A stretch of DNA of 64,000 bases, from contig JAQXNX010000003.1 of assembly GCA_029098225.1 (NCBI GenBank), forward strand, positions 62,001 to 126,000, given 5' to 3'. Positions 5,664 to 56,410 of this stretch are shown here, piece by piece. A program made the position numbers and the translations under genes. Each line of letters begins with the position of its first letter. Within the stretch, counting starts at the first letter, position 1. The notes beneath the pieces were generated by a model. The model was given only the letters and a program-made list of their open reading frames with translations, ran no database searches and was not told the DNA's origin. The DNA is from Spirochaetales bacterium. Lineage in GTDB: Bacteria; Spirochaetota; Spirochaetia; Treponematales; Treponemataceae.

Positions 5664-6539
5664 ATGCCGGCAAAAAATTCTAATTCAGAAAAGAAAGCTG
5701 GAATTTCATATTGGTCAAAAGATAAATGTACTTGTCCAGTATGCAAAAAAGCTTTTGAACGCGAAGTTATGCGAAGCGGTAATGGTCGTATGATTGCAGG
5801 TGGATTAACCGAAGAGTTGCATAGAATTTTTGAACCTTCCGCAAAATACGGCAGAGTATATCCTTTAATTTATGAAATCGGCGCTTGTCCACATTGTTAT
5901 ACAGCTCTTTTATGGAATGACTTTAAAGAAAAAATTAGTCCTGCAGATTTGGATAAGCTTTTTTCTTCTTCTCAAAAAAGAAAGGAAGCCTGTAATCAGG
6001 TTTTTCCATATTTTAATTTAAAGAAAGAACGAACTCTTTTTGATGGTGCAGCAATGTATTATCTTGCACTTATGACTTATGATGAAATGAGTCCAAATAT
6101 GCTTCCAACAATGAAGAAGGCAATTTTGTCTTTACGCTTAGCCTGGCTTACAGATGAAATTCACAAACATTGTGATGGTCATAATTATGATGTTGTTTCA
6201 CAGATGTTTTATTCAAAGGCTTTGTTCTTTTATCAGCAGGCTGTAATTAACGAAACTTCACGTGTAGAAGCAAGTTCTTCTTTAAATAATATGGGTCCCG
6301 ACATGGATAAAAATTATGGCTGGGATGGAGTTATTTATTTATGTGGACTTCTTGAGTATCGCTATGGACAGAAAGATGATATTCAGTTGAGACTTAAAAA
6401 ACTCAGTGAATCTAAAACTGCAATTGCAAGAATTTTTGGTCTTGGTAAATCTTCAAAAAATAAACCGGGACCTCTTCTGGAGCATGCAAGAAATCTTTAT
6501 GACGATATAAGTAAGCTTGTCAGCGATGATGATTTTTAA
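5664..6539 (+). CDS. DUF2225 family zinc-ribbon-like protein
   Basis: The start is chosen at ATG 5664 because GGGAGG at 5654-5659 sits just upstream; the TTG at 5652 overlaps that site. The 291-residue protein begins with a cysteine cluster (C22, C24, C27), and a second CPHC pair lies near residues 75-78. Together these suggest a structural metal site. The rest is helical and resembles a short TPR-like array. It matches the general layout of DUF2225 proteins, common in spirochaetes and Firmicutes but without an established function. It lies between acpS and truA with gaps of 13 and 2 bases, so it is probably co-transcribed. Confidence 0.7.
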   Translation: MPAKNSNSEKKAGISYWSKDKCTCPVCKKAFEREVMRSGNGRMIAGGLTEELHRIFEPSAKYGRVYPLIYEIGACPHCYTALLWNDFKEKISPADLDKLFSSSQKRKEACNQVFPYFNLKKERTLFDGAAMYYLALMTYDEMSPNMLPTMKKAILSLRLAWLTDEIHKHCDGHNYDVVSQMFYSKALFFYQQAVINETSRVEASSSLNNMGPDMDKNYGWDGVIYLCGLLEYRYGQKDDIQLRLKKLSESKTAIARIFGLGKSSKNKPGPLLEHARNLYDDISKLVSDDDF

Positions 6540-6541
6540 AT

Positions 6542-7336
6542 ATGAATAATATTCTATTAACAGTTTCTTATGACGGAACCGAATTTTGCGGATGGCAGCG
6601 TCAGGATGGTAGTGAAGCTGAAAGCTCTCAAAGAACGGTACAGGGAGAAATTGAAAAAGCTCTTGAAAAAATATTTAAACAGAAAGTAAATATTTATGGT
6701 TCGGGAAGAACAGACAGTGGAGTTCATGCACTTGCTCAGGCAGCAAATTTTTTTTCACCTGTTGATTCAATGAATGAAGAAAATTATGTGAGGGCAATTA
6801 ATTCTTTTTTGCCGGACGATATAAGAATTCTTAAGGCGCAAAAAGTCAGCGAAAATTTTAATTCACGAAAATCTGCAACAAGCCGCGTTTACAGATATTT
6901 TATTGCCTTTGGTGAAAATCCTCCTGCAGATAGAAATCGCTTTTGTTATTATGTTCCATCTTGGAAGCCGAATCTTGAACGATTAAATAAATATTGTGAA
7001 TGTTTAAAAGGTGAAATTGATTGCGCATCTTTTACTGCAAGCGGTGATAAAAGTCTTTCCACCTTCCGTTTTATTGAACACGCAAAATTCTTTTATCAGA
7101 AAGATTTCTGGGATAAGGAATATCTGGTTTTTGAAATTGAAGCAAATGCCTTTTTATGGAAAATGGTGCGCACATTAACAGGAACTTTGATAAATCTTGA
7201 TAAAGCAGATGCACCGGAAGATTCTATGAAAAAAATACTAGAAGCAAAAGACAGAACAAAAGCCGGCGTTACTGCACCCTCGCAGGGATTGTTTTTATAT
7301 AAAATAAATTTTGATGGTATTCGAAGGCATGTTTAA
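6542..7336 (+). CDS. truA: tRNA pseudouridine(38-40) synthase
   Basis: It isomerises uridines 38-40 of the tRNA anticodon arm. The 264-residue product shows the TruA signature GSGRTDSGVHALAQ at 53-66, with catalytic Asp58, and an early YDGTEFCGWQRQ motif at 10-21. It begins two bases after the DUF2225 stop, without a clear ribosome site, so it is probably translated by coupling. It is the last gene of the dxs-to-truA run. Its final 14 or so codons lie inside the left arm of the large palindrome described at 7295-7540. Confidence 0.95.
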   Translation: MNNILLTVSYDGTEFCGWQRQDGSEAESSQRTVQGEIEKALEKIFKQKVNIYGSGRTDSGVHALAQAANFFSPVDSMNEENYVRAINSFLPDDIRILKAQKVSENFNSRKSATSRVYRYFIAFGENPPADRNRFCYYVPSWKPNLERLNKYCECLKGEIDCASFTASGDKSLSTFRFIEHAKFFYQKDFWDKEYLVFEIEANAFLWKMVRTLTGTLINLDKADAPEDSMKKILEAKDRTKAGVTAPSQGLFLYKINFDGIRRHV

Positions 7337-7540
7337 AAATAATGTAAAATCTTTTTATGAAAATTTATATATGAAAAATTTACAAAACGAAAATGCGATT
7401 TCAGATTTATAGGCGAAGATGAATAAATCTGAAATCGCGTTTTCGTTTTTCTTTTATTTTTTATATAGTTTAAAAAAAAATTTCAATTATTTTCTAAAAC
7501 CGTTTTCTTCGAATACCATCAAAATTTATTTATATAATCC
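7295..7540. repeat. Large imperfect palindrome spanning the end of truA
   Basis: The last codons of truA (7295-7326) recur in inverted form at about 7507-7540. The two copies share at least 25 identical bases in a row, and one base is missing near the far end. The inner part is also inverted: 7384-7409 pairs with 7424-7449. The AT-rich stretch between the two paired segments looks similar when one side is reverse-complemented. The whole gap between the convergent genes truA and priA is therefore one large quasi-palindrome centred near 7417. There is no gene in 7337-7559. Confidence 0.85.
7384..7449. terminator. Bidirectional hairpin terminator between truA and priA
   Basis: A 26-base arm (7384-7409) pairs with 7424-7449 with about one mismatch around a 14-base loop. 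A-rich sequence lies on the left and T-rich on the right, so the hairpin can end transcripts from both convergent genes. It forms the core of the larger palindrome. Confidence 0.88.
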
Positions 7541-7559
7541 TAATCCAATTATATTCTCT

Positions 7560-9596
7560 TTATAGTAAGCTTACAGGGTCGCAGTCGTATTCTATATAAA
7601 CATTTGGATTGTGTGAATAATCAAATAATAAATGTCGTGCTGCTTCCTGTAAAACTGAAATTGATTTGCTTTTTAATAAAATCTGAAATCTCCAGGAACT
7701 GTTCATTTTTTCTATAGGACATTCTGCCGGACCAATAATTTCTATTCCCTTAAGTTTTTTTTGTGAAATAATATTTGCTGCGTCTATGCTTGTCCTGAAA
7801 GCGGCTTCTTTGTTGTAACTTCTGAAAACAAATCTCAACAATCTTGAAAACGGAGGAAAATCCAGAAGCTCCCGCTCCTTCAGTTCGTTTTCATAAAATT
7901 CTTCAACCTTACCGTTACATGCATAAAGTATTGCTTTTCGAGATGGCTCGTAAGTCTGTACAACTACTTTTCCATCCGGAAAATATCTTCCGGCGCGACC
8001 TGCAACCTGAGTAATCAAAGAAAAAGTCCGTTCACTCGCGCGGAAATCCGGCATATGAAGTCCGGCATCTGCTAAGATTACACCGACAAGCTGAAGCTTT
8101 GGAAAATTCAAACCTTTAGCAACCATCTGTGTTCCAAGCATAATATCATATTTTCCATCTCGAAAATCATCCAGAACTTTTAAGAATTCTTCTTTGTTTT
8201 TGAATGCGTCTGTGTCTGCGCGAATTATTTTTGCCTGAGGAAATTTTGCTTTTACTTCTGCTTCTATAAATTCTGTTCCAAAACCAGTGCTGCCAATATC
8301 CATAGATGAACATTCCGGACAACTCTGCGGAGGTAATGTTGACCATCCGCAATAATGACATCTTAAGCGGTGTTCAGATTTATGATAGGTAAGTGGAACT
8401 GAGCAGTTTTTGCAGACAATTTCAAAACCACAGGAATTACATCTGAAAAAATGAGTAAAGCCACGCCGATTTAAAAATAAAATTGTCTGACGTTTGTTTT
8501 TTATACATTCAGAAATTTCCTTTTGCAGTGGAGGAGAAATACAGCAGTCATTCGGAAAATATTTTAAATCGATTGTTGAAATTTTTGGCATTGTGCCACC
8601 AGCAAGCCTTTTTGTTAATTTATGCGTTATGATTTTATTCTGCTGCATGGAATACCAGGCTTCCACCGACGGAGTTGCGCTTCCCATTACCAGTGGAATT
8701 TTTAAATTGTTGCAGCGGTGCATGGCAATCTGTCTTGCGTTGTAACGAGGACTGTTGCCTGATTTATAAGAATTGTCATGCTCTTCATCAATTATAATAA
8801 GACCAAGTTCAGGAACCGGAGCAAAAACTGCAGAACGTGCTCCAATGACAATTCTTGCTTCTTTATGCATTATACGATTCCATTCACCAAGCCTTTGAGA
8901 CGGTGTTAAACCTGAATGCAGGATAGCTGCAGTTTTTCCAAATCTTTTGGTGGCATCTTTTACTACCTGTGCAGTAAGACCTATTTCCGGAACAAGATAA
9001 ATAACTCCCTTTCCGTCAGAAAGAATTTTTTCTGCCAGCGAAAGAAATACTTCTGTTTTTCCTGTTCCTGTAGGTCCGTATATATAATGATTATTTGTTA
9101 ACGAAGCTTTACGATTTTGTTCTTTTTCCTCTGAAGATTTTTTTGTCATTTCGTAAATTGAATCAACGGCTTTCTGCTGTTCGTCAGACAAAATGTTATG
9201 CTTTTCTACAGAAAAATCATCTTCAAATGCAAAGCCGCCAAGTCCGGTTTCTCTTCTTCCTGAAGGAACCATTGTAAAAACTGCTTCGCCAAATGAACAT
9301 AAATAATAGTGCGACATCCATGCAGCTAGATCTGTAAGCTCTTTTCCGAATAAACTTTCTTTATCTATAATGCGTTTTATCAGCTTGATTTTTGTGCTGT
9401 CTACAGGGCAGTCCTCTGGAATTTGAGTTGAAGCTTTTACTATAAATCCCTGAGTTTTTCTGTTACCAAAAGTAATTTCGGCTCGCTTTCCAATAAATGA
9501 TTCTGGAGTAAGTTCTTCATCCTCATTTTCAGGTTTATAAGAATAAGTGAATGTTTGATTTAGCGGAATATTTAAAACTATCTGGAAGTAGAGCAT
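7560..9596 (-). CDS. priA: Primosomal replication-restart helicase PriA
   Basis: A 3'-to-5' DNA helicase that reloads the replisome at stalled forks. The 678 residues include an N-terminal DNA-binding region beginning MLYFQIVLNIPL, a Walker A GPTGTGKTE near residue 175, a DEEH box (IDEEHD) near 270, and motif III GSATPS. A cluster of paired cysteines follows (CNSCG, CKNC, CHYCG, CPEC; about 385-430) and binds zinc in this family. Helicase C-terminal motifs QVAGRAGR and GTQMVAKG are present. Its start overlaps the upstream glycosylase gene by 19 bases, so the two are co-transcribed. Confidence 0.96.
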   Translation of the reverse strand: MLYFQIVLNIPLNQTFTYSYKPENEDEELTPESFIGKRAEITFGNRKTQGFIVKASTQIPEDCPVDSTKIKLIKRIIDKESLFGKELTDLAAWMSHYYLCSFGEAVFTMVPSGRRETGLGGFAFEDDFSVEKHNILSDEQQKAVDSIYEMTKKSSEEKEQNRKASLTNNHYIYGPTGTGKTEVFLSLAEKILSDGKGVIYLVPEIGLTAQVVKDATKRFGKTAAILHSGLTPSQRLGEWNRIMHKEARIVIGARSAVFAPVPELGLIIIDEEHDNSYKSGNSPRYNARQIAMHRCNNLKIPLVMGSATPSVEAWYSMQQNKIITHKLTKRLAGGTMPKISTIDLKYFPNDCCISPPLQKEISECIKNKRQTILFLNRRGFTHFFRCNSCGFEIVCKNCSVPLTYHKSEHRLRCHYCGWSTLPPQSCPECSSMDIGSTGFGTEFIEAEVKAKFPQAKIIRADTDAFKNKEEFLKVLDDFRDGKYDIMLGTQMVAKGLNFPKLQLVGVILADAGLHMPDFRASERTFSLITQVAGRAGRYFPDGKVVVQTYEPSRKAILYACNGKVEEFYENELKERELLDFPPFSRLLRFVFRSYNKEAAFRTSIDAANIISQKKLKGIEIIGPAECPIEKMNSSWRFQILLKSKSISVLQEAARHLLFDYSHNPNVYIEYDCDPVSLL

Positions 9597-27891: not shown

Positions 27892-29157
27892 TTAGTTTTG
27901 CTGCTGTTCAAGATATTTTCTATATTTCTCAGAATCTACACGGAATGCAATGATTGGAGAATCTGTCTCGTTTTGAGCATGGATAGAAGCTTCTTCTGCT
28001 TCTTTTAAAATTCTTTCTCCACTTACTATTCTTATCGATCTCGTAGAAATTCCAATATAACATTTTGCATTTGTATCTTGAAGAATATTACAGATATCTG
28101 AATATAGTTTTTCTGCAAAATCCATTGCATTATCCAGGTCAAGTCCAATTTTAAGAGCAACTAAGCTGTCATTTTTGTATTCAAATAATAAATCCTTGAA
28201 CTGAAATTGCAATGTAAGATAATTGCAGATGTTTTTAATTTCATCTGAATTTCTGGCAAGAAGCGGAATTTTAAATACGAATACAGCAAGATCAATTTCA
28301 GAAGAAATTGCCCTGTTAATTTCGTTATCCATTCTTTGAATAAGATATTTTTCCCAGCCAATTCCTGTAACTGGTGAATATAATTCACTGTCGCTTTTTC
28401 CAGATATTCTTGCAGGTTTTTCATCTTCATAAGGAAGCTTTGCCGGTTCAACTTCGGTTTTAGCTTTTATATTTCCTAATTCGTAAACATTATTATCAGC
28501 AGGAGCTGGAGCAGATGAATTATCTGAAATTGAAGGTGTTTCCTCTTCAATATTCTCATAAACTTCTTCTTCTGAATCTTCAGCTTCATCTTCGCAATAA
28601 ATGTCTTCATCAGAAACTGCAAGCTTATCTTCTTCATCAGGAATTGATTTATTATTTTCTTGAGGTACATAATTTGAATTCTTTGCACAGATAATTACAA
28701 TGAATGTAATTAAAGTTATAATAAGAACTACAAAAAAAGCATTACGTGCGTAATAAGCAATAGAAGTAGGGCGGATTAAATAAAGTAAAGCTTGAACTTC
28801 AAAATCGCCCTGTTGTTTTGAAATTGTAGATTTGTATGTGCAGGTAAGACTTGTTTCCTGTGGAATAGAATTTACAGAAGGATAAGAATAAATTTTAACT
28901 CCGTTATACTCAATATCCAGATAAGAATAATTATTTAAGTCGCCGATTGAATCAGATAATTTGTCTGTAAAATCTTTTGAAGATAAATCAAAGGAATCAG
29001 AATTTTTTAAGGTAGAAACTATTGCGTTATAATTTATTTCTGTTCTCTCATTGCCGTGTGAATATTCGTTACATAAACTAAAGATAAAATAAACGGCAGC
29101 TCCAAAAAGAATGACTGATGAAAATATAGTATAAAATACTAAAAAACTCTTTTTCAT
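27892..29157 (-). CDS. Membrane protein with degenerate GGDEF-like domain
   Basis: A 421-residue protein: a transmembrane helix at 7-27, a periplasmic sensor stretch of about 105 residues, a second helix at about 135-156, an acidic linker (about 165-245), and a cytoplasmic C-terminal domain. The latter begins PVTGIGWEKYLIQRMDNEINRA, like the start of GGDEF domains, and ends in IGISTRS...EAEEASIHAQ, like their end. The place of GGDEF reads YKNDSLVAL, so catalytic residues are missing. It probably senses rather than makes c-di-GMP, or has another role. GAGGGG sits upstream of the ATG. Confidence 0.7.
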   Translation of the reverse strand: MKKSFLVFYTIFSSVILFGAAVYFIFSLCNEYSHGNERTEINYNAIVSTLKNSDSFDLSSKDFTDKLSDSIGDLNNYSYLDIEYNGVKIYSYPSVNSIPQETSLTCTYKSTISKQQGDFEVQALLYLIRPTSIAYYARNAFFVVLIITLITFIVIICAKNSNYVPQENNKSIPDEEDKLAVSDEDIYCEDEAEDSEEEVYENIEEETPSISDNSSAPAPADNNVYELGNIKAKTEVEPAKLPYEDEKPARISGKSDSELYSPVTGIGWEKYLIQRMDNEINRAISSEIDLAVFVFKIPLLARNSDEIKNICNYLTLQFQFKDLLFEYKNDSLVALKIGLDLDNAMDFAEKLYSDICNILQDTNAKCYIGISTRSIRIVSGERILKEAEEASIHAQNETDSPIIAFRVDSEKYRKYLEQQQN

Positions 29158-29185
29158 TTAAATCCCCTCAATTTAAACACCCTGA

Positions 29186-30730
29186 TTAATTATAACTTAA
29201 AAAAAATGAGTGTGCAAGATTTTTAAGTTCATTATATAATTTATCGGAATTTATCTCATTATTTCTTAGAGTTACATTATTTCTTAAGGCGGCAATCAGC
29301 GGAAGGTAAATTAATTCTTTTATCTGTTCTTGAGAGTTTTCAATAAGATTAAGGATTTCTGCTGTTGATTTCTTGATTTTTTGAGGTTTATATAAATTAA
29401 AATTCTTTGATTCATTTTTAAAATTTTCTGCGTCAGAGAATTTAATTTTATAAATATCGTTTTCAATTCTAAAAGAAGAATTTTCTTTTTTAATAAAATC
29501 TTCAAGTGAAGATTTATATGCGCTTAAAATTTGATTTGTATATTTTTGCTTTGAGATTTCTTCAAGATTTGTTCTGTACATTAATCTGGAAAAACTGTTT
29601 TCCTGAGAAATTATTTTATTGCTTTTATGCAGGAATTGATTTTCAAGATAGGTTCCTTTTGTATATGGTTTTCCTTCATGATAAGAAAAATCTGCACCAA
29701 AAATTTGAACGTTTGAAAAGCCCAGATTTTTGGCAATAGAAACAGCGCTGATTGTAACAGTTCCGGAACCTGAATAAACATTGGGAAAAATTGAATCTTC
29801 CGAATTATTTATGAATGAAGCAAGAGGATGTCCTGAAACAAAAAATCTTACGTTTCCTTCTTTTTCCAGAATTCTTGATGCTGCACTTGAACTTGCACAT
29901 AAATCAAATGCAAATAATGTATTTTGAATTTTTTCTACCGGGAAAAAATGAAAAGAAGATATATTCTGTGCGTCTATTGAAACAACAATGTCACTTTGAA
30001 TTTTCCTTCTTGTTAAACTTTGAAAAGCAGTATCAGTACATATGATAAAATATTTATCTCTTTGCGATTCAATTAGACTTAAGGTTTTATCTAAAGAAGG
30101 ACCTGCTGCAATTACAGCTGCAATTTTTGAAGTGTCCGGTAATGGAAAATCCTGTTTAATATTTTGCGGAAACTTTTGCAGTGAAGAAATATTAGAAAGA
30201 ATATTATGCACCCATATTTTTCCAAAATGAGCCTGAACAGAATAATCTGCGGAAATTATATTTAATGAATGTTGAATGATTTCCGAAATATCTTTTACTA
30301 AATTCTGATTTTCTAAAATCCAGGCTTTCTGTTCAATTATTTTTAAATCTCCGTACTTAGCAGGAAAATAATTATTTATTAATGTTTCATAAAGCTTTTG
30401 AATAGTTGTAAAAATTATGTTTTTGTTTGCCTTAAGTTTTTGAATCAGAGTAAAACTGTTAATAAAGTTTATGTCTTCTTCAGAAGTTTCTACGGCTATA
30501 ATTAGTGCATCTTTGTTTACATTTATAATTTCATTTATCAAAGAGCCGGAGCCACATCCAAGAATTAAAAAAGCTGAATAGGATTTTTCAAGAGAAGCAA
30601 TAATTCTTTTTGCTTCATTAGACGGTGAATATTTAGATTCCATGAATTTTCCACTTTTAAAAACTGGAATCTGCATATTATCTTTTGAGATTTCTATATG
30701 ATCGTAAATACCTGAAACTTTGGTTGTCAT
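29186..30730 (-). CDS. DUF115 / motility-associated glycosyltransferase-like protein (copy 1)
   Basis: The 514-residue product contains the DUF115 core AAVIAAGPSLDKTLSLI followed by FIICTDTAFQSLTRRKIQSDIVVSID, then the SGSGTVTISAVSIAKNLGFSNVQIFGADFS block with a TKGTYLE segment. Members of this MAF family glycosylate flagellins in other motile bacteria, and related archaeal members act in pterin metabolism. It is the last of a four-gene minus-strand set. The start overlaps the stop of the preceding DUF115 gene by four bases (ATGA), implying coupled translation. Together with copy 2 it suggests a two-enzyme glycan step. Confidence 0.85.
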   Translation of the reverse strand: MTTKVSGIYDHIEISKDNMQIPVFKSGKFMESKYSPSNEAKRIIASLEKSYSAFLILGCGSGSLINEIINVNKDALIIAVETSEEDINFINSFTLIQKLKANKNIIFTTIQKLYETLINNYFPAKYGDLKIIEQKAWILENQNLVKDISEIIQHSLNIISADYSVQAHFGKIWVHNILSNISSLQKFPQNIKQDFPLPDTSKIAAVIAAGPSLDKTLSLIESQRDKYFIICTDTAFQSLTRRKIQSDIVVSIDAQNISSFHFFPVEKIQNTLFAFDLCASSSAASRILEKEGNVRFFVSGHPLASFINNSEDSIFPNVYSGSGTVTISAVSIAKNLGFSNVQIFGADFSYHEGKPYTKGTYLENQFLHKSNKIISQENSFSRLMYRTNLEEISKQKYTNQILSAYKSSLEDFIKKENSSFRIENDIYKIKFSDAENFKNESKNFNLYKPQKIKKSTAEILNLIENSQEQIKELIYLPLIAALRNNVTLRNNEINSDKLYNELKNLAHSFFLSYN

Positions 30731-32184
30731 AATAATAAATCAGCTTTTTCTTTAAGCTCTCTAACCTCTTTTTCAATTTTTTGTTTAAGTTCAATTGAGT
30801 CTGGATTTCTTTGTAAAGATACAAAATCTAACGGAAAAATCTGTTTCTTCCATTCTTCATTTTTAAGCTGTTCTTTAATTTTGCTTTTATCAATTTTTAT
30901 ATTTTGTCTGAATTCTTCATAATTAAAATTATTTAATAAATCTTCTTTATTTATTAATTTTATAAATTCCTGAATATCAATATCGTTTATTTTTCCAAGT
31001 TGATTTTTTCTATGTGATTTTTCAATTATTCTGAAAATTTTATTTTCCGGAAAATTCTGAGTTTTAAACCACTGTTCATAAATTTTTAAGGAGTCTGAAT
31101 TAAATTCACTTTTTGTTAATCTTGTCATTCTGTTTTGAATTCTATTTTCTAATGGCTGATTATTATTTTCTATTTCATTTGGTAATGTATGTTGAAAACC
31201 TTTTTGAGAAGATAGATCCAGACCAAAGCAGAAAATTTTTTTATCGGTAATTTTTTGTGCAAGAGTTATTGCTGTACCGCTTACAGTTCCATTTCTTTCT
31301 GCAGAACTGAATTTTAACTGTGAAGCCTTTATAAGAGAATTTGAAATTCCATCTGGATAATTTAACACAAAAACAGGAAGCTTTTCCAAAAGGGATTTTT
31401 TACAAAAAGCCTCAGGGGGAAGGGCAAGAGGAATTAAATCTTGTTCCAGTAATTTTAAATGCTGTCCTGCCCAGTAGCCTCCGTCTGTTGAAAGACATAA
31501 ATCAATTTTTATTTTATTTTTTATGCAGACAGAAATTGCAGAAGATAAAACAATTATAAATAATTTATTTTGATTTTCTTTAATAAATGGCAATGCATTT
31601 TGTAAGCTGGGCCCAGACGCAATTACTGCAACTGAAGAATTAATTTTTTGAGGAAGAAAAAAAGTTTTGTTTACATATTTAAAATAATTAAGTGAATTTA
31701 TAAACCATTTTTTTTCAAAAAATTGACGTGTAATTAAAACTGTTTTTGCTTTTTCTAAAGAAAGTTTTATCTCTTTCCATATATTTTTATTTTCTTCTGG
31801 AAATACTTTAGCAGCATTTTCCCATTGCAAAATTAATGCTGAACAAAGCTTTTCTTCTCCAAAATAATCGTATAAAATTTCTGAAAAAGGAATAGAATAA
31901 TCTGAAGGATAAAATACAAAATCAAAATTTGTGTCTGATTTTTTAAACTCTTTAAAAAATCTTATTGCATAAATCTTCGATTCTGGAAATTTTTGTCTTA
32001 TAAATTTTACAGTATATGAAAGACAAGGCTCGATTAAAATAATAATTTCTGGAACGTAGGAAAGTGAAATATTTTGTGAAAATCTAAGTGCTTCCTGTTC
32101 CGGATTATATTTTGAATGCAGATACAGGTTATTAAATTTACAGGTTAATTCACCGTTTTTTGCATCTTCAAATTCAATGTTCAC
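30727..32184 (-). CDS. DUF115 / motility-associated glycosyltransferase-like protein (copy 2)
   Basis: The 485-residue protein shares the fold of the downstream gene: SVAVIASGPSLQNALPFIKENQNK near residue 185, then LFIIVLSSAISVCIKNKIKIDLCLSTDGG, and NGTVSGTAITLAQKITDKKIFCFGLDLSSQKG. Sequence identity to copy 1 is low outside these blocks, so the paralogues are old and probably act on different substrates. It ends with a charged helix. It starts directly next to the stop of the unknown gene upstream. Inferred role: transferring a nonulosonic-acid-like or other sugar to a flagellar protein. Confidence 0.83.
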   Translation of the reverse strand: MNIEFEDAKNGELTCKFNNLYLHSKYNPEQEALRFSQNISLSYVPEIIILIEPCLSYTVKFIRQKFPESKIYAIRFFKEFKKSDTNFDFVFYPSDYSIPFSEILYDYFGEEKLCSALILQWENAAKVFPEENKNIWKEIKLSLEKAKTVLITRQFFEKKWFINSLNYFKYVNKTFFLPQKINSSVAVIASGPSLQNALPFIKENQNKLFIIVLSSAISVCIKNKIKIDLCLSTDGGYWAGQHLKLLEQDLIPLALPPEAFCKKSLLEKLPVFVLNYPDGISNSLIKASQLKFSSAERNGTVSGTAITLAQKITDKKIFCFGLDLSSQKGFQHTLPNEIENNNQPLENRIQNRMTRLTKSEFNSDSLKIYEQWFKTQNFPENKIFRIIEKSHRKNQLGKINDIDIQEFIKLINKEDLLNNFNYEEFRQNIKIDKSKIKEQLKNEEWKKQIFPLDFVSLQRNPDSIELKQKIEKEVRELKEKADLLL

Positions 32185-33006
32185 TTAGTCTTCCTGAAGA
32201 AATTTTTTTAACTGAAGAAAGGTTTCACAATTTTCTTCGCTTGAAATTTCTAATAATTCAGCACAATCGCCGATTACTTCCCTTAGGTTTATAATTAAGT
32301 GAGTCATCAAAAGCTGAAATTGTGTATTTTGTTTTGCAAGGAAAATTGCCTTTAATTTTTTGACTTCGTTTTTAGAAAAAACTTTAACAGCGTTTATGTC
32401 TGTGCAGCAGATGATTCGGTTAGCAAGTTCATTAAATAATGATTCTTTAAAAACCTGAATTTCTGATTTTTCTTTTATATTAGTTGTTATAAATGAATCC
32501 AAAGCTTCGTCAAAATTAATCGTGCAGTTTATGCATTTAGTTTTAGAATTGATTTTTGAATTAAGTTTTGAACTTTCCGGTTCAGAAAAGTTTTTATCGA
32601 TTAAAGCAAACTGATCGCTAATTGCCTGATCAATTTTTTTATTGCATAAAATAAGTATTCTGTTCTCTAGTTTTAATACATTTATAGTTTCGAGTTTTTC
32701 TGTCATGTTAAAAGAAAAAAACTGGAGAAGGGGAGAAATTGAATTGTCTTTTTTAGAAAATTCTTTTACAGAATTTTCTTTACATAATCCATCCCAGAAA
32801 TCTTTTGTAGAAACTGAAGAAATAATTGAATTAGCATCAAAACCTATGCTGTTTGTAATATAAAATTTATTATTAATAAATTCAAATAAAGCACAGGTTC
32901 TTATTTCGTTATTGCAGATGAATTCTGAAAAGGAAACTGCAGAATTTAATTCAGAAGGTTTAAATTCTGCAGCTTCTATGTTTTCTGCCTTTGATAGCAA
33001 CCCCAT
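32185..33006 (-). CDS. Unknown protein encoded between acidic protein and DUF115 genes
   Basis: Not recognised. The 273-residue protein opens with MGLLSKAENIEAAEF, a possible start of a conserved treponemal family. Its first 140 residues look like an alpha/beta sensor-type domain (strands around CALFEFINNKFYITNSIG and INVLKLENRILILCNKK). A polar linker follows, then a helical C-terminal part around EVKKLKAIFLAKQNTQFQLLMTHLIINLREV. It has no signal peptide or membrane segment. It lies one base downstream of the acidic protein and directly before a DUF115 gene, so it most likely acts with them. Confidence 0.7.
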   Translation of the reverse strand: MGLLSKAENIEAAEFKPSELNSAVSFSEFICNNEIRTCALFEFINNKFYITNSIGFDANSIISSVSTKDFWDGLCKENSVKEFSKKDNSISPLLQFFSFNMTEKLETINVLKLENRILILCNKKIDQAISDQFALIDKNFSEPESSKLNSKINSKTKCINCTINFDEALDSFITTNIKEKSEIQVFKESLFNELANRIICCTDINAVKVFSKNEVKKLKAIFLAKQNTQFQLLMTHLIINLREVIGDCAELLEISSEENCETFLQLKKFLQED

Positions 33007-33007
33007 A

Positions 33008-35695
33008 TTAAGAAAGTCCTAATTCATTAAAGAGTTTCTTGTATGTTGTAAATTCATCAGATTTTGCAAATTCCACAATTTTTTCTTCCGGAAGATTTTC
33101 TAGTAACTGATCCATATAAAGAAGAACTGATTTGATATCCTGCTTTAAGTCTGAATTAATTGTTACATCTTCTGGTGTTTCTGATGTTTCATCTTTTGTA
33201 GTAAGATAATCAATATTGCTTTGTGTAATTGTTTCTTCTTTTGCAGCGTCTGTTTCGTCAAAACTTGCAACAATAGTTTCTTCTTCCGGAACAACATCCA
33301 CAGAAGTTTCTTCATCATCTACTAATGGTTCAGAAATTACATCTGTTTCATCTTCTGAATTTGCAAGAAGTTTATCAACTGTAGGAATATCATCATCTGT
33401 TTCTTCAACAACAGGTTCTTCCAAAGAAGGTTCTTCTTCGATAATTGTTTCTTCTTCAATTGAAGGTTCTTCAGCTACAGGTTCTTCTTCAATAGCAGCT
33501 TCTTCTGCTGTTTCTTCTATAACAGGTTCATCAAGTGATGTTTCTTCAAAAACTGGTTCTTCATCAGCTATTGTTTCAACTATAGTTTCTTCTGCTGCTA
33601 CTTCTTCAACCTGAGGTTCTTCGTTTTCTTTAACGCTGTCCATAAAGTCAGATGAATTAGATTCTACAAAGATATCATCTTCTTTTGGAATTGAAATTTC
33701 CTGTGGAAGATCTTCTGAACTTCCTTCGTCATCTTCAAAGTCTTCTTCTGTAGTAATATTGTCTACATCAGGTTCTTCAAGATTTTCGTTGTCATAATTG
33801 AATACTAAATCTTCGCCTTCAGAAATATCATCAGATTCTTCTAAGATTGAATCATCATCATTGAAAGGAACTTCACCTTCCTCTGTTGCAGATTCTTCAG
33901 GAATTTCAGTCTCTTCTGTTACAACTGCATTTTCAGTATTAAAGTCTTCTGAAATTTCATCTCCAAAATCTGGAAGTTCTGTATTTGCTTCTTCTGGCTG
34001 TTCCTCTGAAATTACAGTGTCTTCTGAAACTATAGCTTCTTCTTCAATTACAGGTTCCTCTGCTGAACTTTCTTCAATAACAGGCTCTTCTACTGCAGTC
34101 TCTTCAATTACAAAGTCTTCATTTTCTGTAACTTCTGGAGTTTCTGCAGGAGTTTCTTCAATTACAAGAGAATTTGCTGAATTATCTTCCGGTGCAGTTT
34201 CTTCTGTAAATGCAGCTGTATTCATTATGTTGTCAAGTTCATCTCCAGAAAGTGCGATTGTATCATCGCCGTCGTCGCCGCTAAAGAATCCGCTATTTGA
34301 GTCTGTTGTTCCAAAAGAATCAGACTCTGTGGGTCTGGGCGGGTTAGTTTTCATCTCCTCAATATTAGACTTAAGTCTGTTAATTTCATCTTTAAGTCCT
34401 GAAAGATCTGAAACAATCTGCTGTAAAAGAGAATTGTCAACTTTTGTAACATCTTCATTATTTTCTTCTGTAGTTTCTTCTACTGTTTTATCTTTTATTT
34501 CATTTACAACTGGAGCAGAGGAAATATTTTCATCTCCAACAGCCAAATCATAATCAACTACAACTTCTTTATTCTTAGCTTCTTCTACGTCCTGAGTAAC
34601 TGGAGTTTCACCTGCGTCGGCATCAATACCAAAGTCAGATAAATCTACATCTTCTGATTCAATATCATTGCTTCCGGATGGTGTGTCTGTTGTTTCTGTT
34701 GCCTCAAATGAACTTCCAAAATCGTCAATGGAAACATCTTCTGTAACAGATTCCTCTGTTTCTTCTATGTCGTCATCATCGTCTAAAGAATCATCTTCAA
34801 TTTCAATATTTTCTTCTGTTTCTACTGAATCAACAGAATCATCAAAAGAAATGTCCATTTCAAGAGGAGGTTCATATTCTACAGGAGCCTGTTCTTTTAC
34901 TTCTGCTGGAGCCATATCAAAGCTGTCTCCATCCATGAAGTCATCTAAAGAAAGTTCTTCTGTATCTCCTGAAGAAGCTGGTGCAGCAGCAGATGGCTCA
35001 GCTCCTGGCTCATATCCGTTATTTCCTGAAGCTACAGATTCATCAGAGAAGCCTTCGTCCATAAAGTCATCAAGAGAAATTTCTTCATCGTTGCCAAAGC
35101 TTACTTCTTCAAAACCATCTTCTGAAGCAGCTTCCTGTGTATCTGTAGAAGTTTCTTCTATATTTTCTTCAGAAAAATCAGGAACTGTTTCTTCTGTAAC
35201 TGTTTCTGCCGATTCTTCCATTCCCGGTACTTCAATTTCTGAAGATTCAAAATCCGGGAGTCCTGCACTTTCTTCTGTTACAGGTTCCTCAAAATCCGGA
35301 AGATCTAATCCACCTTCTTCTGTAGTTTCTTCAAAATCCGGAATTGATTCTTCGGCATCAGGTTCCTGGGGGATATCAAAAACATCTGCGTCTTCACCAG
35401 TAGAATCAATCTGTTCAATTTGAACTGTATCTGTAAGATTTGCCAATTCATCTGTGCTTAAAGCAGAATCAAGATCGTCTGAAAAACCTTCTTCACTCTC
35501 TGTAGAAAATTGTGAGTCATCTTTGAACATATCAGAAAAATCTGAATTATCAAAATCAGGAAGGTCATCGTTTATCTGTGAATTATCCAGATCATTCATT
35601 GCAGAATTATCTTGAATAGATTCATTTTCATCTGTCTTCTTTACCCATACACCGTAACTTTCAAGGTCATTTGTTTTATCTTCTGACATGCTCAT
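33008..35695 (-). CDS. Large acidic repetitive protein (Glu/Asp-rich), unknown function
   Basis: The 895-residue product is dominated by Glu, Asp, Val, Ser and Thr in degenerate repeats such as EEPVIEETAEEAAIEEEP, with very few Lys or Arg. Ordered parts are the N-terminus (SYGVWVKKTDENES), a coiled-coil-like stretch near 430-450 (LLQQIVSDLSGLKDEINRLK) and the C-terminus (LKQDIKSVLLYMDQLLENLPEEKIVEFA). The product has no signal peptide. AAGGGGA is well placed before ATG 35695. The repeats generate long serine-rich open frames on the other strand that are not genes. It could be a scaffold or a flexible organiser. Confidence 0.85.
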   Translation of the reverse strand: MSMSEDKTNDLESYGVWVKKTDENESIQDNSAMNDLDNSQINDDLPDFDNSDFSDMFKDDSQFSTESEEGFSDDLDSALSTDELANLTDTVQIEQIDSTGEDADVFDIPQEPDAEESIPDFEETTEEGGLDLPDFEEPVTEESAGLPDFESSEIEVPGMEESAETVTEETVPDFSEENIEETSTDTQEAASEDGFEEVSFGNDEEISLDDFMDEGFSDESVASGNNGYEPGAEPSAAAPASSGDTEELSLDDFMDGDSFDMAPAEVKEQAPVEYEPPLEMDISFDDSVDSVETEENIEIEDDSLDDDDDIEETEESVTEDVSIDDFGSSFEATETTDTPSGSNDIESEDVDLSDFGIDADAGETPVTQDVEEAKNKEVVVDYDLAVGDENISSAPVVNEIKDKTVEETTEENNEDVTKVDNSLLQQIVSDLSGLKDEINRLKSNIEEMKTNPPRPTESDSFGTTDSNSGFFSGDDGDDTIALSGDELDNIMNTAAFTEETAPEDNSANSLVIEETPAETPEVTENEDFVIEETAVEEPVIEESSAEEPVIEEEAIVSEDTVISEEQPEEANTELPDFGDEISEDFNTENAVVTEETEIPEESATEEGEVPFNDDDSILEESDDISEGEDLVFNYDNENLEEPDVDNITTEEDFEDDEGSSEDLPQEISIPKEDDIFVESNSSDFMDSVKENEEPQVEEVAAEETIVETIADEEPVFEETSLDEPVIEETAEEAAIEEEPVAEEPSIEEETIIEEEPSLEEPVVEETDDDIPTVDKLLANSEDETDVISEPLVDDEETSVDVVPEEETIVASFDETDAAKEETITQSNIDYLTTKDETSETPEDVTINSDLKQDIKSVLLYMDQLLENLPEEKIVEFAKSDEFTTYKKLFNELGLS

Positions 35696-35739
35696 TCAGT
35701 TCCCCTTGTTAACAATTTGAATATTGCTATACTTTTTAA

Positions 35740-35747
35740 TTATCGGC
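35740..35747 (-). promoter_or_regulatory. Sigma-28-type -10 element before the acidic-protein/DUF115 set
   Basis: The minus strand reads GCCGATAA, a perfect match to the -10 consensus of flagellar sigma-28. A TAAA-type -35 at 15 bases is weak (GATTATTT at the expected place, 4 of 8 matches to TAAAGTTT). Transcription would start about 35732, giving a leader of about 37 bases that includes a good ribosome site. Confidence 0.5.
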
Positions 35748-35860
35748 TGTTTTCGTTAAAATAATCACTATTAATATGAAAACAATTTATTTGAGCACTT
35801 TTTGCAGAGCAAAAATGCGTAAATCAAACAATGGCGGTTACGACATTGTCTGATTATTAT

Positions 35861-35907
35861 TATAACACATATTTTTATTTCAGAAAACAGAATTTATTAC
35901 CGATAAT
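35861..35907 (+). promoter_or_regulatory. Candidate promoter sites for the DivIC-like gene
   Basis: Two readings exist. TTACGA (35838-35843) with a 17-base spacer to TATAAC (35861-35866) gives a leader of roughly 45 bases. Alternatively CCGATAAT (35900-35907) lies nine bases before ATG 35917, like the site at 11731, giving an almost leaderless message. No ribosome site is seen, which favours the second. The region 35696-35916 also has a hairpin (TTTTTGC/GCAAAAA, 35799-35815). Confidence 0.4.
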
Positions 35908-35916
35908 AAAAATATT

Positions 35917-36414
35917 ATGAAACGTGCAAAGTATTTGCTAACTTTATTCCTTGGGACTTTGTGTTATGTTGTACTCTCTGTTACTGTTGGTCAAAACAGT
36001 ATTAGAAGTATTTCTCAGATGGAAGAACAGAAACGTCTCGTCAGCAGAAGGACTACAGAAATTCAGAATATTAACAGTGAGCTTTCTCTTGAATTAAATG
36101 CTTTGCAGAATGATAAGGCTGTTATAGCTGCCTATGCACGTAAACTTGATTATGTTTGTGAAGGCGAAAAATTAGTAAAAATAAATGGCTTAAAGCCTTT
36201 CCAGACTGCCTTATACGATACTGGAAAAATTCTTCGACATGAAGAGCCTGTTTTTTTAAGCGAAAAATATTGTAAGATTATTTCTGTATTTTTAGCAGCT
36301 TTGTGCTTCATTATCTTTGTTCTTTATGATTTGAATCACGGAAATTTTGCAATTACAAAAAAGAAACGACCAATAATTACAGGAATTCCTGTATATGATA
36401 TTCCTCAGGTTTAA
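35917..36414 (+). CDS. DivIC/FtsB-like septum protein with a second membrane helix
   Basis: The 165-residue protein has a transmembrane helix at 7-26, then a coiled coil (about 30-70, ISQMEEQKRLVSRRTTEIQN), and then YARKLDYVCEGEKLVKI, which resembles the conserved block after the coiled coil in septum formation initiators (A-R-LG-V-PGE). Unlike ordinary DivIC or FtsB, it has a second hydrophobic helix near 125-142 and a short tail. A cell-division role is inferred from this layout. It stands alone between divergent and convergent neighbours. Confidence 0.65.
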   Translation: MKRAKYLLTLFLGTLCYVVLSVTVGQNSIRSISQMEEQKRLVSRRTTEIQNINSELSLELNALQNDKAVIAAYARKLDYVCEGEKLVKINGLKPFQTALYDTGKILRHEEPVFLSEKYCKIISVFLAALCFIIFVLYDLNHGNFAITKKKRPIITGIPVYDIPQV

Positions 36415-55627: not shown

Positions 55628-56410
55628 ATGCCGATTAATGACGAAAAAGAAGAAGATGACCTTTGGGAAGAATTTAAAAAAACAAAATCTCCTGCCTTAA
55701 GGGATAAATTTATCAGACAATATATGCCTCTTGTAAAATACGTAGCTGGAAAAGTTGCAGTAGGTTTGCCTGCAAGTGTAGAATTTGATGACCTGGTTGG
55801 TTATGGTCAGTTTGGACTTCTTGATGCAATTAATAAATATGATACTTCAAAGAACGTAAAATTTAAAACCTATGCAGTTACAAGAATCAGAGGTGCAATT
55901 TTTGATGAATTGCGTCAGATAGACTGGGTACCTCGTTCTGTAAGACAAAAGTCCAGAGAGATAGAAGATGCAATTGTAACTCTTGAATCTAAATTAGGAC
56001 GAACAGCTTCTGATTCAGAAATTGCTGGTTCTCTTAATATGAGCGAAGATGAATATCATAGAACTGTAATGAAGGTTTCGGGAACAAGCGTACTTTCGTT
56101 AAACGATGTATGGTATTCTGGAGATGATAACGATAACCTTTCTATTGGAAATAATATTGAAGCACCTTCAAGCTTGAATCCTGATGTAATTGCTGAAAGA
56201 GAAGAAATCAGAAAAGTAATTGCTCAGGCAATCAGTGAGCTTCCTGAAAAAGAAAAAATGGTAATCGTATTGTATTATCATGAAGATTTGACATTTAAAG
56301 AAATTGGTGAAGTCCTTGAAGTAAGTGAATCTCGAATTTCTCAGCTCCATACAAAAGCAAATCTGAGATTACGTGCTAAACTTACTAATTTACGAAGGGG
56401 TATTATTTAA
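55628..56410 (+). CDS. fliA: Flagellar sigma factor FliA (sigma-28)
   Basis: A 260-residue sigma factor of the FliA/WhiG class. Region 2 contains LVKYVAGKVAVGLPASVEFDDLVGYGQFGLLDA and KFKTYAVTRIRGAIFDELRQIDW; region 3 has RSVRQKSREIEDAI; region 4 has LPEKEKMVIVLYYHEDLTFKEIGEVL and SRISQLHTKA. AAGGGG precedes ATG. It should direct late flagellar genes with GCCGATAA-type -10 elements, one of which lies before the acidic-protein/DUF115 set in this window. Confidence 0.95.
   Translation: MPINDEKEEDDLWEEFKKTKSPALRDKFIRQYMPLVKYVAGKVAVGLPASVEFDDLVGYGQFGLLDAINKYDTSKNVKFKTYAVTRIRGAIFDELRQIDWVPRSVRQKSREIEDAIVTLESKLGRTASDSEIAGSLNMSEDEYHRTVMKVSGTSVLSLNDVWYSGDDNDNLSIGNNIEAPSSLNPDVIAEREEIRKVIAQAISELPEKEKMVIVLYYHEDLTFKEIGEVLEVSESRISQLHTKANLRLRAKLTNLRRGII

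What the first reader, a model, noticed from the sequence alone, without database searches (positions are those of the whole stretch)
29186..35747. A possible sigma-28-controlled glycosylation module: acidic scaffold, unknown protein and two MAF-type (DUF115) proteins
Seen: four tightly packed minus-strand genes follow a perfect GCCGATAA -10 element (35747-35740). Known: DUF115/MAF proteins glycosylate flagellins in other genera, and GCCGATAA is the sigma-28 -10 consensus; fliA lies in the same window. Inference: the set is a late flagellar module in which the 895-residue acidic protein and the 273-residue unknown protein act with the two glycosyltransferase-like proteins. The -35 part is weak.
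Basis: partly seen in the sequence, partly recalled or inferred. Interest (0 to 1): 0.8.

Follow-up and report, generated by a model that had tools for sequence, protein, structure and literature searches.

The report
Spirochete flagellin-sugar operon with scaffold
An ancient five-gene set in spirochetes, switched on by what looks like the flagellum's own late-gene signal, most likely attaches sugars to the flagellum's building blocks, with three never-described helper proteins that can now be tested.

Summary
The operon has five genes: acidic protein, 273-aa protein, Maf1, Maf2, membrane protein (27892-35695, minus strand). All 40 fetched Treponemataceae regions keep the order, as do most other Spirochaetia families checked. 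GCCGATAA alone is not significant here, but CCGATA stands upstream of the acidic gene in 35/41 Treponemataceae regions (2.2 expected), while nine other conserved genes of these regions are at background. Comparison therefore supports sigma-28 control.

Both DUF115 proteins are Maf-like. In 198 Spirochaetia genomes DUF115, flagellin and NeuB occur together; Borreliaceae (20/20) keep flagellin but lack DUF115, NeuB and the acidic protein, and FlaB sampled there lacks the two serines glycosylated in T. denticola. The likely job is adding nonulosonic acid to FlaB before export.

The acidic protein is a probably disordered linker with conserved ends, single-copy across the phylum. The 273-aa protein looks GAF plus GGDEF-like; the fifth is a membrane-anchored degenerate GGDEF. 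One flagellum-less lineage keeps only the acidic and membrane genes, so these may have a second role. Nothing biochemical was tested.

The parts
35740..35747 (-). GCCGATAA, -10 element of the sigma-28-type promoter
   Evidence: CCGATA conserved upstream of the gene in 35/41 Treponemataceae regions
35758..35767 (-). TGATTATTTT, -35-like element in the conserved register T[A/G]..TTTT-N11
   Evidence: lacks the canonical TAAA
33008..35695 (-). Acidic, probably disordered 895-aa linker protein; single-copy family across Spirochaetota with no Pfam or NCBIfam match
35639..35668 (-). N-terminal motif DLESYGVWVK of the acidic protein (M1)
34187..34294 (-). Central motif of the acidic protein, GFFSGDDGDDTIALSGDELDNIMNTAAFTEE (M2); degenerate in the flagellum-less relatives
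33011..33151 (-). C-terminal motif of the acidic protein, DLKQDIKSVLLYMDQLLENLPEEKIVEFAKSDEFTTYKKLFNELGLS (M3)
   Evidence: (20 invariant columns)
32185..33006 (-). 273-aa protein: N-terminal GAF-like domain, C-terminal GGDEF-like domain (from predicted structures only)
30727..32184 (-). Maf1, MptE-like/DUF115 protein, probable flagellin glycosyltransferase paralogue
29186..30730 (-). Maf2, MptE-like/DUF115 protein, probable flagellin glycosyltransferase
27892..29157 (-).
35900..35906 (+). CCGATAA on the opposite strand, 17 nt before the ATG of the divergent DivIC-like gene; CCGATA conserved there in 25/39 regions

Best explanation
This is a late flagellar operon that adds sugars to flagellin. 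FliA (sigma-28) transcribes it together with flagellin and chemotaxis genes. Maf1 and Maf2 (plus two further Mafs elsewhere in the genome) transfer a CMP-activated nonulosonic acid to Ser/Thr of FlaB in the cytoplasm, before export. The acidic protein is a long flexible linker that ties the Mafs, the GAF/GGDEF-like 273-aa protein and the membrane-anchored degenerate-GGDEF protein into one complex near the export site. Shown here: gene order, conserved promoter, Maf homology, co-occurrence with flagellin and NeuB, target motif in FlaB. Inferred: FliA dependence, the acceptor and donor, and above all the scaffold role.
For: Order acid-u273-maf1-maf2-g421 in 40/40 fetched Treponemataceae regions, in a T. 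pallidum-sized genome and in most other families of Spirochaetia examined. CCGATA upstream of the acidic gene in 35/41 regions against 2.2 expected, with nine other well-sampled genes at background, and close to the start codon in 12 of 16 regions from flagellated genomes outside the family. The same -10 in front of flaB and an MCP operon in this genome. Mapped T. denticola sigma-28 promoter P_flaB2: -10 CCGATAA, -35 TTAA (PMC9481697). Maf profiles match PDB 5mu5, the M. magneticum Maf (1e-10 and 4e-8), better than archaeal MptE. Of 198 Spirochaetia: DUF115 and flagellin both in 137; flagellin only in 20, all one family (f22, Borrelia type); DUF115 only in 3; neither in 38. Strong NeuB in 133 of 140 DUF115+ genomes and 3 of 58 without. 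FlaB of this genome carries VEVSQL and DRIAS, the motifs glycosylated in T. denticola (PMC7431986); three Borreliaceae FlaB have IEIEQL and NRIAD or NRVAD instead. Borrelia lacks sigma-28 (PMC12655853). Maf-dependent flagellin glycosylation precedes export in Aeromonas (PMC4065374).
Against: The -35 of the window site lacks TAAA. The acidic gene (G153, G212, G180) and the fifth gene (G153, G212) persist in genomes without flagellin or DUF115, so their function is not only flagellin modification. G150 has the acidic and 273-aa genes but no adjacent Mafs. Genomes carry about four DUF115 genes, so this operon's two may be redundant or act on other targets. Binding between these proteins is untested. 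The co-occurrence counts are not corrected for phylogeny.
Confidence: 0.7

Rival explanations
1. The acidic protein and the membrane GGDEF-like protein have an older, flagellum-independent role, for instance in cell envelope, pole or division. The 273-aa protein and the Mafs are a cassette that uses them, or merely shares the transcript.
For: In flagellum-less f12 genomes (G153, G212) the acidic and membrane genes are directly adjacent and, in G153, lie in the ancestral context between DivIC/Sua5 and an RNase Z-like gene, with u273-maf1-maf2 missing. The divergent neighbour is a DivIC/FtsB-like gene with its own conserved CCGATA.
Against: The acidic family is lost with DUF115 in Borreliaceae and most flagellum-less genomes: 122 both, 3 acidic only, 18 DUF115 only, several of these incomplete. 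The central motif M2 is degenerate in the flagellum-less relatives, as if that part served the flagellar cassette.
Confidence: 0.25
2. The glycosylation operon is real, but transcription comes from a sigma-70 promoter and the GCCGATAA is incidental in this species.
For: The motif count in the window is not above chance; the -35 is poor; T. denticola flaA and flaB1 use sigma-70 promoters (PMC9481697).
Against: Position-specific conservation over 35/41 regions while other genes of the same regions are at background.
Confidence: 0.1
3. The DUF115 pair modifies another acceptor (sheath or hook protein, surface glycan) or makes a pterin, as the archaeal MptE name suggests.
For: Pfam names the domain after archaeal 6-hydroxymethylpterin diphosphokinase; two other DUF115 genes sit beside a penicillin-binding-like protein and a SurA-like protein, not beside flagellin.
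Against: Best solved relative is a Maf, not MptE; linkage to flagellin and NeuB across the class; FlaB, not the sheath protein, is the glycosylated filament part in treponemes (Wyss 1998, title cited in PMC13144727).
Confidence: 0.1

Closest known systems
Maf (motility accessory factor) flagellin glycosyltransferases, e.g. Aeromonas caviae Maf1, Campylobacter Maf/PseD, C. botulinum Maf, M. magneticum Maf (5mu5)
   Same: Central PF01973 domain; genome also has flagellin and a NeuB-type nonulosonic acid synthase; likely acts on flagellin in the cytoplasm
   Different: Two paralogous Mafs in tandem within a conserved five-gene operon, behind a sigma-28-type promoter and away from flagellin genes, with three accessory proteins not described for other Maf systems in the papers found here
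T. denticola FlaB glycan (Kurniyati et al. 2017, cited in PMC7431986 and PMC13144727)
   Same: Same phylum and target protein; the modified motifs are present in this genome's FlaB
   Different: The transferase genes are not named in the papers readable here; this operon is a candidate for them
PelD-type GAF plus degenerate GGDEF receptors
   Same: The predicted domain order of the 273-aa protein is GAF-like then GGDEF-like, and its C-terminal half aligns with PelD among others (Z 6.8, rmsd 3.9 over 113 residues)
   Different: No significant sequence similarity; models of low confidence; c-di-GMP binding untested
T. denticola sigma-28 promoter P_flaB2 (PMC9481697)
   Same: CCGATAA -10
   Different: -35 TTAA there; T[A/G]..TTTT pattern here

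Membership tests
Maf flagellin glycosyltransferase | Central MptE-like/DUF115 (PF01973) domain above the curated cut-off | tested here: met
   99.1 and 67.1 bits against cut-off 34.6
Maf flagellin glycosyltransferase | Closest solved structure is a Maf rather than archaeal MptE | tested here: met
   5mu5 1.3e-10 and 3.6e-8; MptE 8sd5 4e-8 and 2.6e-4
Maf flagellin glycosyltransferase | Three domains: degenerate Rossmann-like N-terminus, PF01973, helical C-terminus (PMC11339370) | tested here: inconclusive
   Lengths fit and Maf2 has weak methyltransferase-like N-terminal hits, but the match to 5mu5 covers only the central part
Maf flagellin glycosyltransferase | Genome encodes flagellin and a nonulosonic acid synthase (NeuB family) | tested here: met
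Maf flagellin glycosyltransferase | Transfers nonulosonic acid to flagellin; mutant loses the glycan | not testable with these tools
   needs mass spectrometry of mutants
PseD equivalog (NCBIfam NF050051) | Score over the curated cut-off of 670 bits | tested here: not met
   35.9 bits for Maf2, none for Maf1
Sigma-28 promoter | GCCGATAA -10, conserved in orthologous position | tested here: met
Sigma-28 promoter | TAAA-type -35 at 14-16 nt from GCCGATAA | tested here: inconclusive
   Window has TGATTATTTT; the family consensus is T[A/G]..TTTT; a few orthologues have TAAA-like sequences
Sigma-28 promoter | Transcription depends on FliA | not testable with these tools
   needs a fliA mutant
Active GGDEF diguanylate cyclase (421-aa protein) | GG[DE]EF signature | tested here: not met
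   Profile matches GGDEF structures (5euh 4e-6), but the signature region reads EYKNDSL: degenerate domain
PelD-like GAF-GGDEF protein (273 aa) | GAF domain followed by degenerate GGDEF domain | tested here: inconclusive
   N-terminal half of the T. bryantii orthologue: all listed rows GAF-type, Z up to 9.8; C-terminal half of the window model: Z up to 7.9, many GGDEF but also Thg1 and transposases; no profile match

The most novel reading that the evidence does not exclude
A phylum-wide disordered linker protein, a GAF/GGDEF-like protein and a membrane-anchored degenerate GGDEF protein form a membrane-docked complex that holds Maf transferases at the flagellar export site, so that flagellin is glycosylated as it is made and delivered: an organised, possibly signal-regulated glycosylation machine not described for other flagellated bacteria.
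Probability: 0.35. Interest if true: 0.75.

Novelty: new variant of a known kind. Interest (0 to 1): 0.6.

Why it matters
[quoted passage not shown] denticola (cited in PMC13144727), but no operon for the transfer step was found in the literature searched. This locus is a concrete, conserved candidate, also present in a T. pallidum-sized genome, with a mutant-by-mutant prediction. It also brings out a single-copy Spirochaetota protein family (the acidic linker) that Pfam and NCBIfam do not hold, and offers gene loss as the reason why Borrelia-type flagellin lacks the modified serines.

Tried and rejected
GCCGATAA as evidence by itself: rejected, not above chance. MptE-type pterin enzyme: rejected as the likely role, since the closest solved relative is a Maf. 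Homology of the 273-aa protein to the GGDEF of the fifth gene by profile comparison: not significant (hhalign E 0.077), though the aligned register is the one expected. PDB profile search with the 273-aa family: no real match; Foldseek with its model: nothing at E <= 0.001. AlphaFold2 with two sequences gave low confidence (pLDDT 54.7 and 63.1), so domain assignments are leads. The search for related loci brought one locus only (T. bryantii). Papers on TP0178-TP0182 or DUF115 in Treponema: none found; Kurniyati et al. 2017 is not held.
Full report
What is there. On the minus strand, 35695 to 27892, lie five genes in one direction: acidic protein (895 aa), 273-aa protein, Maf1 (485 aa), Maf2 (514 aa) and a 421-aa protein, with gaps of 1, 0, -4 and 28 nt. 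The next gene runs convergently. Upstream, a DivIC/FtsB-like gene (35917-36414) is divergent. FliA lies at 55628-56410, and the window holds further flagellar genes including MotA, FliL, FliM, FliO, FliP and the FliR- and FlhB-type export proteins.

Is the promoter real? GCCGATAA is at 35747-35740, but one such octamer is unremarkable: two in the window against 1.22 expected, and CCGATAA in the genome 312 against 273 for the reversed pattern. Comparison changes this. Upstream of the acidic gene CCGATA occurs in 35 of 41 Treponemataceae regions against 2.2 expected, and it is the most over-represented 6-mer of all. As a control, nine other well-sampled conserved genes of the same regions (smpB, TP0183 family, maf1, maf2, the 273-aa gene, the fifth gene, three neighbours) have 0-4 hits, at expectation. 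The only other gene with an excess is the divergent DivIC-like gene (25 of 39 against 1.8). Aligning 28 proximal sites gives T[A/G]..TTTT-N11-[G/A]CCGATA: the -35 half has information, but differs from TAAAGTTT. Outside the family, 12 of 16 regions from flagellated genomes have CCGATA within 110 nt of the predicted start. In this genome the same -10 with a good TAAA stands before flaB and before an MCP-cheW-type operon. In T. denticola the mapped sigma-28 promoter of flaB2 has CCGATAA and TTAA (PMC9481697). I conclude that sigma-28 control is likely; it is not proven.

What the enzymes are. Both DUF115 proteins pass the PF01973 cut-off, are paralogues (hhalign 1.3e-36), and have as closest solved relative the M. 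magneticum Maf 5mu5. They do not reach the PseD equivalog cut-off, so they are Maf-like, not PseD. Each Treponema genome has about four DUF115 genes; the other two of this genome sit beside a penicillin-binding-like and a SurA-like gene.

Who has them. In 198 Spirochaetia genomes, DUF115 and flagellin occur together in 137, DUF115 alone in 3, flagellin alone in 20, neither in 38. Strong NeuB (E < 1e-40) is in 133 of 140 genomes with DUF115 and 3 of 58 without. Within family f14, genus g71 has both DUF115 and flagellin and genus g34 neither, so losses have happened more than once. Relatedness inflates the Fisher values; the pattern of parallel loss is the better argument. FlaB of this genome carries the VEVSQL and DRIAS motifs, whose serines are modified in T. 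denticola and replaced in B. burgdorferi (PMC7431986). The three Borreliaceae FlaB read here have IEIEQL and NRIAD or NRVAD. A review states that Borrelia also lacks sigma-28 (PMC12655853). So sigma factor, sugar synthase, transferases, acidic protein and target serines are all absent in that family.

The accessory proteins. The acidic protein has conserved ends (M1 ELxSYGVWVK; M3 about 47 aa with 20 invariant columns) and a central motif (M2 GFFxxDDxDETIALSGDELDNI), joined by variable acidic stretches that bring the total to 500-1800 aa. M3 is found once per genome in 125 of 198 Spirochaetia and 64 of 80 Spirochaetota, in no Pfam or NCBIfam family. The 273-aa protein has no sequence relatives of known structure. 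Its predicted N-terminal half (T. bryantii orthologue, pLDDT 63) matches GAF domains only among the listed rows, Z up to 9.8 over about 115 residues. The C-terminal half (window model, pLDDT 55) matches GGDEF folds among others, Z up to 7.9. These are leads. The 421-aa protein has hydrophobic N-terminal segments and a C-terminal domain whose profile matches GGDEF structures (5euh 4e-6), but the signature is lost (EYKNDSL).

A complication. In two flagellum-less genomes of family f12 the acidic and 421-aa genes sit side by side, and in G153 they keep the ancestral place between DivIC/Sua5 and an RNase Z-like gene; the 273-aa, maf1 and maf2 genes are absent. M2 is degenerate there. A third flagellum-less genome (G180) keeps a 210-aa acidic protein only. 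So the acidic protein probably has a role beyond flagellin, and M2 is the best candidate for the part that serves the Mafs.

Mechanism proposed. Sigma-28 switches the operon on with flagellin. Mafs load nonulosonic acid onto FlaB in the cytoplasm before export, as in Aeromonas (PMC4065374). The acidic protein tethers the Mafs and the 273-aa protein, and the 421-aa protein anchors the set at the membrane. The first two steps I hold at about 0.75, the tether at about 0.4.

Novelty. Maf glycosylation, the T. denticola FlaB glycan and sigma-28 in treponemes are known. New, as far as the searched literature shows, are this operon as the candidate transfer module of spirochetes, its conserved promoter, and three associated protein families.

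Noticed in passing
window 35900-35917: A CCGATA conserved 14-20 nt before the ATG of the divergent DivIC/FtsB-like gene in about 25 of 39 Treponemataceae regions; if it is a -10, the transcript would be nearly leaderless. Many copies also share an upstream block TTTCAGAAAACAGAAAT. It would link a division-type gene to the flagellar sigma factor.
   Followed up: partly
L158 (G153) 6363-8746 and L160 (G212) 1-1887: Flagellum-less spirochetes keep the acidic gene directly next to the 421-aa gene; u273-maf1-maf2 are missing between them.
   Followed up: partly
L117 8094-9713 and L118 8212-9840 (own genome, contigs 19 and 16): The other two DUF115 genes of this genome lie after a penicillin-binding-like gene and after a SurA-like gene; a T. 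pallidum-sized genome also has two extra DUF115 genes, one after a similar membrane gene (L120 8769-10490).
   Followed up: no
G195, G298, G313 and G244: Flagellin-less genomes of family f11: three have strong NeuB without DUF115, and G244 has both NeuB and one DUF115 gene, perhaps for another glycoconjugate.
   Followed up: no
L124 1506 and L125 3658 (own genome): Good sigma-28-type sites (TAAA-N15/16-GCCGATAA) directly before a secreted 443-aa protein and a LysM-type 297-aa protein, candidate further members of the regulon.
   Followed up: no
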